Assembly (NCBI GenBank): GCA_016350165.1
Contig: CP066225.1
Coordinates: 3,534,001 to 3,598,000 of the forward strand
DNA: 64,000 nucleotides
Source: Planctomycetota bacterium
GTDB taxonomy: Bacteria > Planctomycetota > Phycisphaerae > Phycisphaerales > Phycisphaeraceae
Reading direction: 5' to 3'
Made by a program: the position numbers and the translations under genes. Shown piece by piece: positions 23,882 to 35,889 of the stretch. The notes below the pieces were generated by a model, which did not search any database, was not told the origin of the DNA, and saw only the letters and a list, made by a program, of their open reading frames with translations. Each line of letters opens with the position of its first letter. Positions within the stretch are counted from its first letter, which is position 1.

Positions 23882-25780
23882 TCACGTGGTTGCTGCCGCA
23901 GGAGTCGCGATTTTAATGTCCAAAACATGCATATCAGGCGACAATCTGTTCTGCCAATTGTTAATCGCAGGCGAGAAAACCAGATCCAAATGCATCCCCA
24001 CCGCCAATTTCTCCGCTAATTCGCCCAATCCAAATCCCACAGCCCGTTTGCACTTCTCCCCATGTCGAATGTTGATCGACAGGTGTGCGCCCTCCGACCC
24101 GATCCGCTGAGGCGGGCGATCCAGCACCACATTCCGCAGCACAAGCTTGGGCTTCGGATTCGCATTGCCAAATGGGGCCAGCGTTTGGATCGTTTGGAAC
24201 AGCTGCAACTGAATATCCTTGAATTCAATCTCAGCATCAATCTTCAATGTTGAAACCAGTTCATCTTCCGCAAGTGCATCATTGCAGTGATTGATTAGAG
24301 CATCACGAAACGCATCAACATTTTCTTGTTGTAGCGTACAACCCGCCGCTGCTTCATGTCCGCCGAACTTGGTCAGATGTTCACCCGCCGCAGTAAATGC
24401 AGCATGAATATCAACCCCACCAAATGAACGCGCCGAACCTGATGCGCTGCCGTCTTCTTCATATGAAAGCACAACTGCAGGGCGGTGATATGCTTCAACC
24501 AATCGTGATGCAACAATCCCGACCACACCCTTATGCCATTCTGCATCACCCACCACGATCGCGCGTTTATCAGGTGATGCTAATCCCAACTCATCAATCA
24601 TCTTTTTCGCTTGTTGCACGATATCACGTTCAGTATCTTTTCGCTTCTGATTTTCAACCGTGAGGAAATCAGCAATGTGTCGCGCTTGTTTTTCCTGTGC
24701 GACCGTCAACAGGTACAACGCATTTCGTGCATGACCCATGCGGCCGCTCGCATTGAGTCGCGGCCCAAGTACAAACCCAACATGATACGCATCCACCTTT
24801 TCATCACGCAGCTTCGATGAATCGATCAACGCATTTAACCCTGTAAAAGGCGTATTTTTAATGCGGCCAAGTCCATAAATCGTTAGCGCTCTGTTCTCAC
24901 CAACCAGCGGCACAACATCCGCAACCGTTCCCAATGCGACAAGTGATAACAGATCGACCATCAGCTTTTTAAAAACATCAGGTAACGCGCCGGATTCTTC
25001 ATTGAGGTTGTGATGCAACCGTGCGAACTGCCACGCCAACTTAAACGCAACACCCGCCCCACATAAATCACCAAACGGATATGCTTCCTGATCTGAAGGT
25101 ATGCGCGGATGAACCAATGTATGTGCATCAGGTAGATTGTCTGCATCGAAATGGTGATGGTCGGTGATGATCAAATCAACACCAAGTTCTTTTGCGAGTG
25201 TGGCTTGTTCACAGGCAGTGATGCCGCAATCGACGGTGATGATCAATGGGGCGACAGTTGGATCGGCTGGTTGCCCGTTATTGATTTTATTTTCGGGATC
25301 TGAATACCAGTTGCATGATGCGATATGTTTGAGTGCTTCGGAGTTGAGCCCATAACCTTCATCGAGGCGGTGTGGGATGTAGCATGAGACGTTCGCTTTT
25401 GCGAGGTCGAGTGTGTGAAAGAGGATAGTGGAGGCAGTGACGCCGTCAACGTCGTAGTCGCCGTAGATGACGATGGGTTGATTGTCGTTGACGGCTTGGC
25501 TGATACGTTTTGCAGCCTGTGTCGCACCGGGGATGAGTGATGGGTCATGCAGGTCGGTGAGTTTTGGGGTGAGAAATGAGAGCGCTTTGTCAGCTTCAGT
25601 GATTTTGCGTGAGAGCAGCAGTTTTGCGATCAGCGGATGCTGATGGATTTGCTGGGCGAACTCATCAGGATCGATGTTGTCGATCTGCGCATCAGGTTGC
25701 GCGGATGGATCGGTGGTGTTAGTGAGTGGACGTGGGGTCCAGGTTGATTTGAAGCCGAATTCTGGTGTCATGGGTTCCAT
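23882..25780 (-). CDS. recJ: Single-stranded-DNA-specific exonuclease RecJ
   Basis: About 632 residues of the DHH phosphoesterase superfamily: a 5'-3' ssDNA exonuclease in recombination and mismatch repair. Motif I VIYGDYDVDGVTAS, motif III LIITDHHHF, the GRMGHARNA region and DHHA1 GGHEAAAG are all present, followed by an OB-fold C-terminus. No Shine-Dalgarno is clear at 25780 (ATG, MEPMTPEFG); an internal ATG at 25771 is an alternative. Base composition changes abruptly inside the gene near 25.15 kb: the plus strand is C-rich to the left and G-rich to the right. Confidence 0.95.
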   Translation of the reverse strand: MEPMTPEFGFKSTWTPRPLTNTTDPSAQPDAQIDNIDPDEFAQQIHQHPLIAKLLLSRKITEADKALSFLTPKLTDLHDPSLIPGATQAAKRISQAVNDNQPIVIYGDYDVDGVTASTILFHTLDLAKANVSCYIPHRLDEGYGLNSEALKHIASCNWYSDPENKINNGQPADPTVAPLIITVDCGITACEQATLAKELGVDLIITDHHHFDADNLPDAHTLVHPRIPSDQEAYPFGDLCGAGVAFKLAWQFARLHHNLNEESGALPDVFKKLMVDLLSLVALGTVADVVPLVGENRALTIYGLGRIKNTPFTGLNALIDSSKLRDEKVDAYHVGFVLGPRLNASGRMGHARNALYLLTVAQEKQARHIADFLTVENQKRKDTERDIVQQAKKMIDELGLASPDKRAIVVGDAEWHKGVVGIVASRLVEAYHRPAVVLSYEEDGSASGSARSFGGVDIHAAFTAAGEHLTKFGGHEAAAGCTLQQENVDAFRDALINHCNDALAEDELVSTLKIDAEIEFKDIQLQLFQTIQTLAPFGNANPKPKLVLRNVVLDRPPQRIGSEGAHLSINIRHGEKCKRAVGFGLGELAEKLAVGMHLDLVFSPAINNWQNRLSPDMHVLDIKIATPAAATT

Positions 25781-26141
25781 GATAACGCAGATGTGGGGTG
25801 GAGGGGAGATGGGGCTGTAAGGTAATGGGGTGGGGGGATGACTGGCATAAAGGGTATAGATGGTAAGGTTTGCCAAAAGTTTGTGATTGATGCGAAAGGA
25901 ATTGGGGGGCGGGTGGACTTTGGGGGATTTGAAACCGATAAGTGATGGGAGCCGAGAGGTTTTCGTGTGACTATTTTACATCTTGAGTTGTGGGTGATTG
26001 GGTATATATGTCGCGCGTGATTGAAGATGAATCGGGAGCTGGGATATGAAGTACAAAGCTGATGTATCGATTCAGGTTAGGAGCATTGGTGTTTGTTGGT
26101 TGTGCCTGTGATCAATCTGAGGTGTCGGGAAGGATAAACAA

Positions 26142-26680: not shown

Positions 26681-26999
26681 GATGCGGTTTTGTGCGCACG
26701 ATTTGTTTAAAAGTTGGTTTTTCAGATGGTCATAAAAAGGGGTTTTGAAAATGAGTCTATGCGCGTATTAGTCGAGTAGATGAGCGGTATTGTTAAGTTT
26801 TGAGATAAACAAAGGAGTTATGAACGGGGATGCGCGCTTTTGTGCGCACGGATGTGAAAGTTGATTGATTTTCGGTGACTTTCCCGTATACGGTTTTGAG
26901 GTGTTTTGGTTTGAAATGAGTTGGTTTTGGTTCGTTTTAGTGTTGTTTTGGTAAAGAATTGAAAGGGTTTGGAGAGGGGGATGCGTGTTTGTGCGCGCG
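26681..26999. repeat. Three degenerate copies of a GT-rich motif spaced about 150 nt
   Basis: Motif copies begin GATGCG and end TGTGCGCACG or TGTGCGCGCG at 26681-26700, 26829-26850 and 26980-26999. The starts are 148 and 151 nt apart. Sequence after copies 1 and 2 also shares short blocks (AAAGTTG near the motif, GGTTTTGA further on). This suggests an old tandem duplication of a unit of about 150 nt. No gene is visible in 26577-27087. Confidence 0.5.
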
Positions 27000-27087
27000 T
27001 TTTGAATGGGGGTTTGTTTTGGTATGCGGTTTGCATGTTGGGGAGTTAAATTGTGAGCAACGGATGGGGGTGAGGGGTGGGCACGCC

Positions 27088-27233
27088 GATCGTGGATCGG
27101 CGGCTATTTTGAATTGTTACACTCAAGCGTATCGTCCAATGAGGCGTGGGAATGTATGGTTGAGTTGTTTCAAGAAAGCGTATCGTCAAGTAAAAGTTTG
27201 AAGGTGATATGTTGTTACATTCAAACGTATCGT
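27088..27233. repeat. Array-like element, locus A: lead block plus three spaced 22-nt repeats
   Basis: A 21-nt block beginning GATCGTGGAT and ending GGCGGCTATT (27088-27108) is followed by three 22-nt repeats at 27114-27135, 27165-27186 and 27212-27233. Each begins TTGTT and ends CGTATCGT. The spacers are 29 and 25 nt and unrelated. The same architecture recurs at 35691-35889. The lead block here also forms a GCCGATC-GTG-GATCGGC hairpin with the bases before it. Confidence 0.85.
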
Positions 27234-27280: not shown

Positions 27281-27314
27281 TAAAAACAGACGCAATTTTG
27301 GGATTGCGTCTGTT
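27281..27314 (-). terminator. Intrinsic terminator of the dockerin/PEP-CTERM gene
   Basis: A perfect 12-bp stem: AACAGACGCAAT (27285-27296) pairs with 27303-27314. On the minus strand TTTTATC follows. It begins 22 nt after the stop codon. Confidence 0.92.
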
Positions 27315-27336: not shown

Positions 27337-29394
27337 TTAGTTTTGATGGCGGCGTCTTGTGAGTAGAGGGGTTGCAGCGAGGAGGAGCAGGAGGGAGGCT
27401 GGTTCGGGGATGAGGTGTGCGCGGATTTGTTCGAAGGTCATACCTGCGTTGTGAGCCATGAGTTGGAGGTCGGTGTCGTTGACTTGGAAGTCGCCTGAGA
27501 AATCGCCTTGTGTCCAGTTGAAGGAGCCGTCTTGGAGATATGAGTCCGTCAGGAGGTTGATGTCGGTGAGGTTGACGAAGCCGTCGAGGTTGAGGTCGCC
27601 GAGGAGATGTACTTCGGCGAGGATGCTATCGTATTTGTTGAGGACGGCGAAGCCTAGTGATTGGTCGATGACGGTGTTGTTGATGCGGTCGAATGAGCCA
27701 GTGAAGTTTGAACCTTTGAGTAGCTTGAAGAATGAGCCATGTGTGAAGGTGTAATCATCTTCGGGGAGGATGGTAAGGGTGCCGTTGAGTGTTGTGCTGT
27801 TGGCGGTGATTGTGATGTGGTTCATGGTCTGCTCGCCGAGGGTGAAGGTGAGGCCTGAGTCGTTGTTGAGTGAGAGTGAGTTGGTGGTGAGGTTGTTACT
27901 GACGTGGAGGTTGCCATGGGTGATGTTGAGTTGGTTGACGATGTTGCGTTGGGTTGAATGTTGGAATGAATCGTTGAGGTTTAGATGCCACGTGTGGTTT
28001 GTGTCGGTTGCGTCTGCTTGTACGAGTTCGAGAGTTTCGATGCCGAAGAGGTTGTGGTTGAAGGAGCCGGAGCCGCCGAGGATGAGTGTATCGCCTTGCG
28101 GGGTGTTGTTGAATCCGAGACGGATGTCGCCGAGGATGTTGGCGTTGGTGTTGAGTTGTACGAAGTCATCGTTTGCGTAAGCGTTTGCGGTTGTTTCGAA
28201 GGCGTCTTTGGTTGCGATGGCAGCGGTTTTTGCGTTGGCGTCGGTTGCGTGTGCTGCGATGGTGCCAGTGATGTTGTTGAGGGTGAGTTTACGGCCATAG
28301 ATGCCATAGACGTTGGTGGTGCCTGTGGCTTGAATGTTGCCTGCGAATCCTTGTTCGATGAATAGTTCGGTGTAGTAAGCGGAGATGCCGTGGACGTTTG
28401 ATTCGGTGCCGTTGGCGATGATCTGTGCGGAGTCAGTGATGTTTCCGATTTTGAGTTGGCCTAATGAATCGTAGTCGCCGTTGTCGTTCATGTAGATGCC
28501 AGCGATGTTGCGTTCGCCTTGAACATTGATTTTGCCAGCGAGTGAGTTGATGGAGAGGTTGCCGTGATCGGAGATGATGCCGTAGTTGTACCAGTTTGCG
28601 GAATTGACTGTAATTTCAGCGGTTTCTGTGATGTTGCCGATGGCAAGGCCTGAGTTGGAAGAGTGTATGGCGGAAGCGTAACCAGCGTTGCTGGATGTGC
28701 TGTTGACGGTGATTTTGCCGGCGAGGTCGCCAAGGATGTCGAGCTTGTTGTTGCTGTAGATGCCACGGACACTACGGCCTGCGCCTGTGATGTCGATGTA
28801 GCCTGTTTGGTCGAAATTTTGGATGACGATGTCTGCTGCGTTGGCGTGTATGCCATAGGCACGCGCGTAGCCTGTAGAGGTTTCTGTGCCGGAGTTAAGT
28901 TTTAGACCGCCTGCGAGTTTGTCGATGTAAAGTGTTCCGCCGCTGGGGGTTTCGATGAGTGTCGCGTCATTGCCTTCGTTGATGGCGGAGAGTAACGCGC
29001 CTTGCTCAATGTTGATGTGTGCTGATTTGTTTTTGATGACGCCGAAACGGTTGGTTCCTTCGCCGTTGTATGTGACGTCATTGTTGATGAGGAGTTGGAC
29101 TTTGCCTGCGAGGTTGATGGTTGGTTGTGTGCTGTTGGTGTTGATCCAATAGCGATCTGTGGAGTTTGAGTTGCGTAGGTCGATGATGAGAGGTTGGTCG
29201 GGTGTGTTGCCTTGGATAGAGTTGGGGATGTTTACGACTGAGCCAGTGTTGGAGAGATTGAGCTTATCGACGCCTGTGGTTGGCTGGAATTCGTAAACGT
29301 TGGTTTGTGATTCGGTGAATCCTGCGAATAGAGGGGATGTGGATAGCAAGCAGCTAAGGATTGGTAGGGTGGTCAGTAAGCTATAGCGATTCAT
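27337..29394 (-). CDS. Large secreted protein with dockerin-like repeat and PEP-CTERM tail
   Basis: About 685 residues. The signal peptide MNRYSLLTTLPILSC ends near LFAG. A long body of beta-rich, Asn/Thr/Gly-rich repeats (for example GKITVNSTSSN and GKINVQGERN) resembles passenger-type beta-helix proteins. Near the C-terminus there is a dockerin type I-like pair, GDLNLDGFVNLTDINLL and GDFSGDFQVNDTDLQLM, with Ca2+-loop Asp/Asn residues. It ends IPEPASLLLLLAATPLLTRRR, an exosortase signal. Start 29394 is chosen because AGGAGAG lies about 9 nt upstream; the ATG at 29400 is too close to it. Probable cell-surface protein. Confidence 0.87.
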   Translation of the reverse strand: MNRYSLLTTLPILSCLLSTSPLFAGFTESQTNVYEFQPTTGVDKLNLSNTGSVVNIPNSIQGNTPDQPLIIDLRNSNSTDRYWINTNSTQPTINLAGKVQLLINNDVTYNGEGTNRFGVIKNKSAHINIEQGALLSAINEGNDATLIETPSGGTLYIDKLAGGLKLNSGTETSTGYARAYGIHANAADIVIQNFDQTGYIDITGAGRSVRGIYSNNKLDILGDLAGKITVNSTSSNAGYASAIHSSNSGLAIGNITETAEITVNSANWYNYGIISDHGNLSINSLAGKINVQGERNIAGIYMNDNGDYDSLGQLKIGNITDSAQIIANGTESNVHGISAYYTELFIEQGFAGNIQATGTTNVYGIYGRKLTLNNITGTIAAHATDANAKTAAIATKDAFETTANAYANDDFVQLNTNANILGDIRLGFNNTPQGDTLILGGSGSFNHNLFGIETLELVQADATDTNHTWHLNLNDSFQHSTQRNIVNQLNITHGNLHVSNNLTTNSLSLNNDSGLTFTLGEQTMNHITITANSTTLNGTLTILPEDDYTFTHGSFFKLLKGSNFTGSFDRINNTVIDQSLGFAVLNKYDSILAEVHLLGDLNLDGFVNLTDINLLTDSYLQDGSFNWTQGDFSGDFQVNDTDLQLMAHNAGMTFEQIRAHLIPEPASLLLLLAATPLLTRRRHQN

Positions 29395-29726
29395 GTGCAT
29401 CTCTCTCCTGCCTGAATGCGTGTGTATTAAAGCGACGCCTTTCATGAAGGTTCATGAATGTGATTTAGTTGGGTCGCTGTTTTGCCCCTCCGAGGGGACT
29501 TAAAAGTTATGGCAATCATGAAGCGTTAACAAGTTATATCAAGGTGTTTTGTATAATTTTTTAAATGAATGCAGCATAGCTTTTCTATTTTTACATACTG
29601 AGGTTGAATGTGTGTGTTTAGGGGAATTGGTCTGTTTGGGAAGTTTGTATTGATTGGGGTTGGAGCGATTCGATATGATGGGGGCTTGGGTTATTAGATT
29701 TAGTTTTTTGTTGATAAGGATTGGTT

Positions 29727-30917
29727 ATGAAACGGCTATGTTTTGTCGCTATGTTGTTGCTGATGTTGGGAGGGTGCGTGAGCTTAGGGGGCAGTGGGGG
29801 TGGGGTTATGCATGAGAAGGGGGATGGGGATGAAGCAGTGGTGGGGGGTGAGATTATTGAATGTGGTGTGATGGGGATGCCGAGCGTTGGGCCTTCGCAG
29901 GAATACTTTGGGATTCAGGCGGAGAGAGCGGGGGATTTGGAAAAGGCGAGAGTGCACTATACGCGTTGGTTGCAGGCGAAGCCTAGTGATGAAGGTGTTT
30001 GGTATTCATTGGCGAGAGTGCTGATGGGGATGGGTGATGTGGATGGCGCGATGGTTGCGTGGGAAAGAGCGGGGGAAGCGGGGTTTAAGGATATTGGGCG
30101 GATTGATGGGGATGGGTTTTGGGAAAAGGTTAAGGAGGATGAGCGGTTTGTGAAGGGGATAGCGAAGGTGAAGGAGAATCGGGGGAAGGAAACGACGGAG
30201 GGGATGGTCCGTGAGTTTTTGAAGCAGGAGAGGTTGGGGACTTATGTGGTGCTTTTGCCAGAGGATTATGAGGCGGAGGCTGAGAAGCGGTACTCGGTTT
30301 GTGTGATTTTGCATGGTAGTGATTTGAATGAGAAGCGGTATTTGAGGGTCGCGGATAAGTTGGGGCGTGATGATGTGATTTATGTGTTGCCACGTGGGCC
30401 GTTTGTTACGGAAAACTCGTTTCGATATGGGCAGGAAGGTTATACGGGGTGGCCGACGTATCGCTTGGGTGAGAGCTGGGGGAAGGTTGAACGGGCGAAG
30501 TTCCATGCGAAGTGGGTGATGGACTGTGTTGAAGATGTGAAAGAAAAGTATCGGGTGAAGGATGAGAAGGTTTGTTTGCTGGGGCACAGTATGGGTGGCG
30601 CGTTTGCGTATATGACGGCGAGCATTTATCCGGAACAGGTGAGGTCGGTGTTCTGCTATGCGGGGTATTACTTTGAGGAGTTTACGAGTGACGAGGCGAT
30701 GAGTGAGCTTCGCAATGAGGATGTGTCGGTCTGGCTTGCTCATGGTGAGAAGGATCAGGTTGTGGGTAAGGAGTTTGCGGTGGAATTGCAGGGGCGATTG
30801 GAGTCGTGGGGGATTGAGAATGGTTTGTGGTTATTAGATTGTGGGCATCGTGTGGAAGAGGTGGTTTACGAGCCAATGGAGAAGTGGTTGGATGAGGTTG
30901 TGCGGGGCGAGAAATAA
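29727..30917 (+). CDS. TPR lipoprotein with alpha/beta-hydrolase domain
   Basis: About 396 residues. Lipobox LGGC follows a short signal peptide. Residues about 60-130 form a tetratricopeptide-like pair (FGIQAERAGDLEKARVHYTRW, VWYSLARVLMGMGDVDGAM). The rest is an esterase or phospholipase-type alpha/beta hydrolase: VCVILHGSD near the oxyanion hole, nucleophile elbow GHSMGG, Asp in HGEKDQVV and His in CGHRVEE. All three catalytic residues are present. The substrate is unknown. The start at 29727 follows AAGGA by 6 nt; an upstream in-frame TTG is rejected. Confidence 0.87.
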   Translation: MKRLCFVAMLLLMLGGCVSLGGSGGGVMHEKGDGDEAVVGGEIIECGVMGMPSVGPSQEYFGIQAERAGDLEKARVHYTRWLQAKPSDEGVWYSLARVLMGMGDVDGAMVAWERAGEAGFKDIGRIDGDGFWEKVKEDERFVKGIAKVKENRGKETTEGMVREFLKQERLGTYVVLLPEDYEAEAEKRYSVCVILHGSDLNEKRYLRVADKLGRDDVIYVLPRGPFVTENSFRYGQEGYTGWPTYRLGESWGKVERAKFHAKWVMDCVEDVKEKYRVKDEKVCLLGHSMGGAFAYMTASIYPEQVRSVFCYAGYYFEEFTSDEAMSELRNEDVSVWLAHGEKDQVVGKEFAVELQGRLESWGIENGLWLLDCGHRVEEVVYEPMEKWLDEVVRGEK

Positions 30918-35690: not shown

Positions 35691-35889
35691 GATCGTGGAT
35701 TGGCGGCTATTGGTGAGTTGTTGCACGAGAACGTATCGTTTATTGTTAAAAACGAATAGTTGGGCGCGTTGTTTCACTAAAGCGTGTCGTTAGTTGTGAA
35801 AGATGAAATGTTGAAAGTTTTATTTCACTAGAGCGTATCGTTGGATGGTGATTTTGATGGGACGGTATTGTTGCACTAAATCGTATCGT
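35691..35889. repeat. Array-like element, locus B: lead block plus four spaced 22-nt repeats
   Basis: The lead block (35691-35711) is 20/21 identical to the one at 27088-27108. Repeats lie at 35718-35739, 35769-35790, 35820-35841 and 35868-35889. They share TTGTT at the left (TTATT in the third copy) and CGTATCGT at the right (CGTGTCGT in the second). Spacers are 29, 29 and 26 nt and differ from each other and from locus A. No gene is visible in 35522-35971. Confidence 0.88.

What the first reader, a model, noticed from the sequence alone, without database searches (positions are those of the whole stretch)
35691..35889. Array-like intergenic element: shared lead block plus four 22-nt repeats with unrelated spacers
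A 21-nt lead block is followed by four 22-nt repeats at a period of 48-51 nt, separated by 26-29-nt spacers that do not resemble each other. A sister element with the same lead block and the same 22-nt repeat lies 8.5 kb away (27088-27233). Seven copies in all share TT.TT at the left and CGT.TCGT at the right, with variation in the middle. It looks like a small CRISPR array in dimensions but has no cas genes and its repeats are degenerate. It could be a dispersed repeat family, a multi-site protein-binding element or a non-coding RNA locus. I know of no described family with this layout.
Basis: seen in the sequence. Interest (0 to 1): 0.6.

Follow-up and report, generated by a model that had tools for sequence, protein, structure and literature searches.

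The report
Outward-pointing repeat arrays at skew-reversal sites
The repeats belong to a genus-specific DNA family that almost always points away from small gene-free elements; where a genome has such an element, the base composition of the two DNA strands reverses around it, as it does around replication origins, which hints that this bacterial chromosome carries well over a hundred origin-like sites.

Summary
The genome matches Poriferisphaera heterotrophicis ZRK32 by size. The "22-mer" is the core of a ~33-nt motif with 240 genomic matches (control 4); under a stricter search ZRK32 has 157, P. corsica KS4 7 and 39 other relatives none. The lead block is a REP-type hairpin with a GTAG/ATAG foot.

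The context is the surprise. ZRK32's GC skew is a sawtooth: sharp upward reversals every ~31 kb with gradual declines, at third codon positions whatever the gene strand. Reversals coincide with intergenic clusters of GTGCGC[A/G]C boxes, confirmed on held-out ZRK32 and KS4 sequence. Arrays point away from these clusters in 37 of 38 cases. In a syntenic block, clusters present in only one species go with a reversal only in that species, and the same orthologous genes can carry opposite skew. The window holds a ZRK32-only case: three boxes at 149-150-bp spacing, a sigma54-like motif, then the sister array.

Best reading: arrays are strand-polar companions of gained, origin-like elements. Element-skew coupling is shown by comparison; replication initiation and any array function are inferred. 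Array 2 (the cited coordinates) has an eroded hairpin and no nearby element. I found no published description.

The parts
35691..35711 (+). Lead block of array 2: GATC-GTG-GATT core plus GGCTATT of the REP-like hairpin; left stem arm eroded (CAGTAGATC instead of GCCGATC)
35718..35739 (+). Array 2 repeat 1 (22-nt core of the ~33-nt motif)
35769..35790 (+). Array 2 repeat 2
35820..35841 (+). Array 2 repeat 3
35868..35889 (+). Array 2 repeat 4
27084..27102 (+). REP-like hairpin of array 1 (8-pair stem, 3-nt loop); lead block 27088-27108; reverse complement reads AATAG-CC-hairpin
27114..27135 (+). Array 1 repeat 1
27165..27186 (+). Array 1 repeat 2
27212..27233 (+). Array 1 repeat 3
26692..26699 (.). 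Box 1, GTGCGCAC, 326 bp upstream of the sigma54-like motif
26842..26849 (.). Box 2, GTGCGCAC, 150 bp after box 1
26991..26998 (.). Box 3, GTGCGCGC, 149 bp after box 2; DNA between boxes of this class has 10-11-bp phased A/T tracts
27018..27034 (+). Sigma54-like motif TTTGGTATGCGGTTTGC (GG-N10-GC), reading into array 1
   Evidence: RpoN present
27285..27314 (.). Terminator-like hairpin between array 1 and the converging gene at 27337
25076..25148 (.). Best-fit GC-skew reversal (about 25095), inside the recJ-like gene 23882-25876

Best explanation
The array is a member of a genus-specific repeat family: a REP-type hairpin (GTAG/ATAG foot, palindrome), often followed by one to several copies of a bipartite ~33-nt motif at ~41-56-nt spacing. 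Shown by sequence: it lies in gene-free DNA on the locally G-rich strand and points away from small box-cluster elements (GTGCGC[A/G]C sites; in one class three at ~149-150-bp spacing followed by a sigma54-like motif). Shown by comparison of two species: the presence of a box cluster goes with a sharp reversal of GC skew around it and with changed, often opposite, third-position skew in the same orthologous genes. Inferred: the elements start strand-asymmetric DNA synthesis in both directions, that is, they work like replication origins, so each flank has leading-strand composition outward. Inferred: the hairpin and 33-nt motifs are strand-polar sites used or targeted on DNA leaving the element, most simply protein-binding sites on exposed or freshly replicated DNA. 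Next to the sigma54-like class they may also be transcribed as a short non-coding RNA. Array 2, the cited coordinates, is a more distant member 8.7 kb downstream of the window's element on the same G-rich strand.
For: Sawtooth skew: 16 up-steps in 498 kb, mean interval 31 kb; 15 up-steps but only 1 down-step reach 0.5; seen at third codon positions regardless of gene strand; also in KS4. Boxes within 2 kb of reversals: discovery stretch 42/50; held-out ZRK32 28/38 (shifted mean 4.7, max 14 in 2000) and 12/17 (2.5, max 10); KS4 28/40 (4.3, max 14). Arrays point away from box clusters in 37/38 clusters, 13 of them within 600 bp. The 45 multi-copy groups first sampled were never of mixed strand. 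Gain/loss: five ZRK32-only clusters, including the window's, have step 0.57-0.75 in ZRK32 and -0.13 to 0.12 in KS4; one KS4-only cluster has 0.36 in KS4 and -0.07 in ZRK32; six shared clusters have steps of 0.5 or more in both. Most orthologues left of the window element have skew -0.2 to -0.7 in ZRK32 but +0.6 to +0.8 in KS4. Box+motif pattern: 28 in ZRK32, 3 in KS4, 0 in 299 other genomes of the order, control 0. In ZRK32, 8 of 10 sigma54-like elements have 33-nt motifs 32-403 bp downstream and none upstream within 700 bp; in KS4 it is 1 of 3. Motif positions vary largely independently, which is site-like rather than subfamily-like. The outward G/T-rich sign is the one expected for forks leaving an origin (established knowledge; fork-polarity reading of N-shaped skew, PMC3320577, seen as title and abstract only).
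Against: No replication, transcription or binding data exist here. The reversal lies 0.4-1.9 kb upstream of the sigma54-like element, not on it. dnaA is intact and not at a reversal, and single-origin replication is the default for bacteria. Some reversals lack nearby 33-nt motifs, and KS4 has the sawtooth with few motif copies, so the arrays are not needed for the skew. Some reversals, 4 of 17 in KS4, have no box within 2 kb, and isolated boxes show no step of their own. Box enrichment was discovered on the 498-kb stretch, although then tested on held-out sequence; the gain/loss set lies in a single syntenic block that includes the discovery stretch. The array function is not tested at all.
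Confidence: 0.45

Rival explanations
1. The array is a REP-like mobile repeat without a cellular role. REP transposase chemistry uses single-stranded DNA, so copies would pile up on one strand near sites where forks start; the polarity would be a by-product.
For: The lead block has the REP anatomy: GT[A/G]G or its C-to-T derived form, up to 2 nt from a hairpin with stem 7-9 and loop 3; stem variants are compensated (GATC/GATC, GAGC/GCTC, GACC/GGTC, GGGC/GCCC). 157 copies in ZRK32 versus 7 in KS4 and none in 39 other relatives indicates recent expansion or loss. Copies are extragenic, 0 of 38 clusters in coding sequence.
Against: No intact REP transposase found in ZRK32; the only Y1 domain is a frameshifted IS200-like gene. 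The 33-nt motif lacks clear subfamily structure. The GTAG-hairpin strand is the C-rich strand, not the one predicted to be lagging-strand template, so simple lagging-template insertion predicts the other orientation (inference).
Confidence: 0.3
2. Transcription causes the asymmetry: the sigma54-like element drives long transcripts that expose the non-template strand, and the array is part of that RNA.
For: Sigma54-like GG-N10-GC motif with three regularly spaced upstream boxes; RpoN present. Array 1 lies between that motif and a terminator-like hairpin, and the putative RNA folds better than shuffles, z -4.0.
Against: Skew extends over 10 kb on both sides, through genes of both orientations and beyond a terminator-like hairpin, and reverses upstream of the promoter-like motif. 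Most box clusters lack the motif.
Confidence: 0.1
3. The elements are recurrent break or recombination sites (or condensin-type loading sites) rather than origins; arrays are polar signals of that process, like Chi or KOPS.
For: Polarity, G-richness and repeated positions outward from a site resemble polar signals. Phased A/T tracts between boxes suggest a bent nucleoprotein complex.
Against: 5'-to-3' resection from breaks would expose the opposite strand and predict the opposite sign of skew (inference).
Confidence: 0.1
4. Assembly artefact or scrambled inversions of an ordinary two-replichore genome.
For: Inversions and misassembly do produce skew anomalies (PMC8941118, PMC7717575).
Against: Same sawtooth in two species sequenced by different groups; 167 orthologues are collinear in the same overall orientation while their skew differs; declines are gradual, not square-wave.
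Confidence: 0.02

Closest known systems
REP sequences (repetitive extragenic palindromes) and REP-associated tyrosine transposases
   Same: Short extragenic hairpin with a GTAG foot, many copies, compensated stem variants (feature list from PMC6006769)
   Different: Often followed by a 33-nt non-palindromic motif in regular arrays; polar relative to skew reversals; no intact REP transposase found in the genome; many copies have ATAG
N-shaped GC-skew replication domains of mammals
   Same: Sharp upward step, gradual decline, repeated along the chromosome
   Different: Bacterial, ~31 kb rather than megabase domains, steps tied to a short defined sequence element; replication itself not measured here
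Iterons and origin-proximal strand signals of plasmids (from general knowledge)
   Same: Direct repeats of ~20 nt near an origin-like region, orientation-specific
   Different: Variable 41-56-nt spacing, dozens of chromosomal loci, no known initiator
Polar chromosome signals such as Chi and KOPS (from general knowledge)
   Same: Strand-polar, G-rich context, oriented outward
   Different: 33 nt rather than 8, hundreds rather than thousands of copies, clustered near reversals
Multi-origin interpretations of skew in some bacteria (PMC3269012)
   Same: Multiple polarity changes read as multiple origins
   Different: That review argues from polarity changes in a few bacterial skew plots; here there is a matching cis element and its gain and loss between species

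Membership tests
CRISPR array | Near-identical direct repeats | tested here: not met
   Repeats vary at many positions, two core positions almost free
CRISPR array | Adjacent cas genes | tested here: not met
   Ten neighbouring proteins (23.9-39.9 kb) scanned with Pfam: no Cas family; rest of genome not scanned for cas
CRISPR array | Spacers matching phages or plasmids | not tested
   Not searched; spacers are G-rich and very C-poor
REP sequence | GTAG or GTGG 0-2 nt 5' of a hairpin with stem 7-20 and loop 2-5 | tested here: inconclusive
   Met by family members with GGCTACT; array 1 has the hairpin but ATAG; array 2 has lost the left arm; definition from PMC6006769
REP sequence | Extragenic location, many copies | tested here: met
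   69 lead blocks at <=3 mismatches, control 1; array clusters 0/38 in coding sequence
REP sequence | REP-associated tyrosine transposase in the genome | tested here: not met
   Only a frameshifted IS200-like Y1 gene in ZRK32; a weak Y1 candidate in KS4
Sigma54 promoter | GG-N10-GC (-24/-12) with RpoN in the genome | tested here: met
   TTTGGTATGNNNTTTGC in the class with boxes at -326/-176/-27; RpoN E=1e-60
Sigma54 promoter | Transcription start ~12 nt downstream | not testable with these tools
   No RNA data
Chromosomal replication origin | Skew reversal from C-rich to G-rich at the site | tested here: met
   in the sigma54-like class the reversal is 0.4-1.9 kb upstream of the element
Chromosomal replication origin | Replication initiates there | not testable with these tools
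   Needs marker-frequency or fork-direction data
Chromosomal replication origin | Initiator binding sites (DnaA or other) | tested here: inconclusive
   Boxes GTGCGC[A/G]C found by k-mer enrichment; binder unknown; dnaA lies away from reversals
Known Rfam RNA | Match to a curated RNA family | tested here: not met
   Window has only a tRNA above gathering scores

The most novel reading that the evidence does not exclude
Poriferisphaera replicates its single chromosome from well over a hundred gained-and-lost origins, each marked by box clusters, and the REP plus 33-nt arrays are polar signals acting on forks leaving those origins: a eukaryote-like, multi-origin bacterial chromosome.
Probability: 0.3. 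Interest if true: 0.97.

Novelty: categorically new. Interest (0 to 1): 0.85.

Why it matters
Bacterial chromosomes are taught as having one origin. Here two related species give a natural experiment: where a short gene-free element is present, skew reverses around it and the same orthologous genes can carry the opposite strand composition; where it is absent, they do not. If the elements are origins, a cultured bacterium has a many-origin chromosome with a defined cis sequence, which can be tested directly. If they are not, some other short element sets mutation asymmetry over tens of kilobases, which would be equally unexpected. The arrays give a strand-polar marker of the process and possibly a handle on its proteins.

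Tried and rejected
CRISPR: repeats degenerate, no cas among ten neighbours. Known RNA family: none above gathering score. Integron attC, Rho rut site and terminator readings: considered from anatomy, set aside because arrays ignore gene strand (9 same, 7 opposite among tandem gene pairs). Spacers as tandem duplication remnants: only 2 of 17 within-array pairs exceed 0.6 similarity. Exact pattern scan of the named genome collection: 0 hits (own genome or near relatives may be left out). dnaA as the site of a main reversal: not so. Gene co-orientation with skew: weak, 95 versus 74. A sequence motif at the reversal point itself, other than the boxes: none clear. Literature searches for a described bacterial skew sawtooth or for skew in Phycisphaerae found none; the library lacks many subscription papers. 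A mismatch-tolerant sigma54-like scan gave 22 candidates, of which the -326/-176/-27 class is the convincing part.

Full report
Observation. Aligning 176 copies from fetched sequence shows conservation over about 33 nt, G.GTTGTTTCACT-NN-ARCGTATCGTTGGTTGG, with four conserved C while the spacers are only about 6% C. Genome-wide there are 240 matches at two mismatches or fewer against 4 for the reversed control, and 69 lead blocks at three mismatches or fewer against 1. Under a stricter pattern the repeat counts are 157 in ZRK32, 7 in KS4 and 0 in 39 other relatives.

Anatomy. The lead block is part of a hairpin followed by GGCTAYT, that is, reverse-complemented, (G/A)TAG-CC-hairpin. Among 60 such hairpins the stems differ by compensated changes (GATC/GATC, GAGC/GCTC, GACC/GGTC, GGGC/GCCC), and 22 have a 33-nt motif within 60 nt. 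That is REP anatomy (definition read in PMC6006769), but no intact REP transposase was found: the only Y1 gene is frameshifted and IS200-like. In array 2 the left arm of the hairpin is eroded, so the cited element is a decayed member; array 1 is intact. The 33-nt copies vary position by position with little subfamily structure; the two middle bases are the most strongly linked, and a few neighbouring flank positions are linked more weakly. This looks more like a constrained site than recent copying, although copy numbers argue for expansion; both remain open.

Strand polarity. In the first sample every array lay on the locally G-rich strand and none of 45 multi-copy groups mixed strands. A permuted or reversed weight matrix gives 0-4 hits against 192, so the motif matches are not a trivial effect of G/T-rich DNA. 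Clusters never overlap predicted genes (0 of 38), and orientation is independent of gene strand.

Skew sawtooth. The window has domains of third-position skew up to +0.86 and down to -0.71 that ignore gene strand. Over 498 contiguous kb, skew forms a sawtooth of 16 sharp upward reversals, about 31 kb apart, with gradual declines; 15 upward but 1 downward step reach 0.5. KS4 shows the same; stretches of two other genera of the family do not (standard deviation about 0.04). Milder waves occur in some others. dnaA is present but not at a reversal.

Boxes. K-mers enriched at reversals contain GTGCGC[A/G]C, mostly in gene-free intergenic clusters. The association was found on the 498-kb stretch and then tested elsewhere: within 2 kb of reversals lie 28 of 38 boxes in 1.5-1.9 Mb (shifted mean 4.7, maximum 14 of 2000), 12 of 17 in 2.42-2.57 Mb (mean 2.5, maximum 10) and 28 of 40 in KS4 (mean 4.3, maximum 14). 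Relative to box clusters, 37 of 38 array clusters point away and 13 are within 600 bp; the exception is 35 kb away. One class has boxes 326, 176 and 27 bp upstream of TTTGGTATGNNNTTTGC, a sigma54-like motif; a strict pattern finds 28 in ZRK32, 3 in KS4 and none in 299 other genomes of the order, with control 0. RpoN is present. DNA between these boxes has A/T tracts phased at 10-11, 21-22 and 31-32 bp, absent from flanking control DNA. In ZRK32, 8 of 10 such elements carry 33-nt motifs just downstream, against 7 of 21 other clusters (Fisher p 0.02, modest); in KS4 it is 1 of 3.

Natural experiment. KS4 0.600-0.871 Mb is collinear with ZRK32 3.369-3.697 Mb, window included. Where both species have boxes in the matching gap, both have a step of 0.5 or more (six loci; in two of them KS4 keeps a single box). 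Five ZRK32-only clusters, the window's among them, have 0.57-0.75 in ZRK32 and -0.13 to 0.12 in KS4. One KS4-only cluster has 0.36 against -0.07. Isolated boxes away from clusters show no step of their own (the one at KS4 612089 lies 1.7 kb from a cluster's step), and one pair of clusters is offset by about 2 kb in different gaps. At the window locus the gap between orthologous genes is 4414 bp in ZRK32 and 135 bp in KS4. Most of the orthologues on its left have third-position skew of -0.2 to -0.7 in ZRK32 and +0.6 to +0.8 in KS4. Part of that contrast may come from the KS4-only cluster further left. Inserted DNA therefore does not explain the skew; the composition of resident genes has changed.

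Mechanism. Established knowledge: DNA leaving an origin is G/T-rich on the outward strand, and N-shaped skew in mammals is read as fork polarity (PMC3320577, abstract listed). The sign, shape and coupling to a gained element fit origin-like activity; break resection predicts the opposite sign, and transcription does not explain skew on both sides through genes of both strands. Against: the reversal sits 0.4-1.9 kb upstream of the sigma54-like class, and nothing here measures replication. For the arrays, a polar protein-binding site and a REP-like mobile repeat both fit. Simple insertion into lagging-strand template predicts the hairpin on the other strand, which counts against the mobile reading in its simplest form. 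Array 1 could be transcribed: it lies between the sigma54-like motif and a terminator-like hairpin (27285-27314), and the putative RNA folds 4 standard deviations better than shuffles, though the terminator stem and REP hairpin probably account for much of that. Array 2 has no box cluster within 8 kb.

Limits. Contiguous reading covers about 1.05 Mb of ZRK32 and 0.6 Mb of KS4; 'well over a hundred' reversals is an extrapolation from one per ~31 kb. Gene calls are simple open-frame calls. The gain/loss set is six one-species clusters in a single syntenic block that overlaps the discovery stretch. The literature library is incomplete, so 'no description found' is not proof of novelty.

Noticed in passing
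window 1-64000; G000:C1:3200001-3698000: GC-skew sawtooth with reversals every ~31 kb independent of gene strand; became the main context of the finding.
   Followed up: yes
G015, G005, G048, G080 stretches (L249-L261): Other genera of the family and order show weaker, broader skew waves, some with boxes nearby; may be a milder form of the same phenomenon.
   Followed up: partly
G000:C1:2246839-2247315: Second DnaA-domain protein (546-aa frame) besides dnaA at 2498075; relatives also have two.
   Followed up: no
G000:C1:680223-680581 (L083): IS200-like Y1 transposase gene split by a frameshift; the only Y1 domain found in ZRK32.
   Followed up: partly
G001:C1:3329730-3330011: Weak Y1 transposase match in a 190-aa frame in KS4, a possible REP transposase.
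   Followed up: no
downstream of sigma54-like elements, e.g. G000:C1:3472394 (-), 1668513 (-), 1509514 (+): Shared leader with a palindrome like CCTCAATGAGGCC...GGCCATTGAGG before the repeats; possible conserved RNA hairpin.
   Followed up: no
G000:C1:2430206-2431300: 19-copy locus in which pairs of 33-nt motifs with alternating 51/55-nt spacing repeat as a near-identical ~106-bp unit, a clear recent tandem expansion.
   Followed up: partly
window 27337-30917: A gene with a weak dockerin match and an esterase gene lie with the element in the gap that is only 135 bp in KS4.
   Followed up: no
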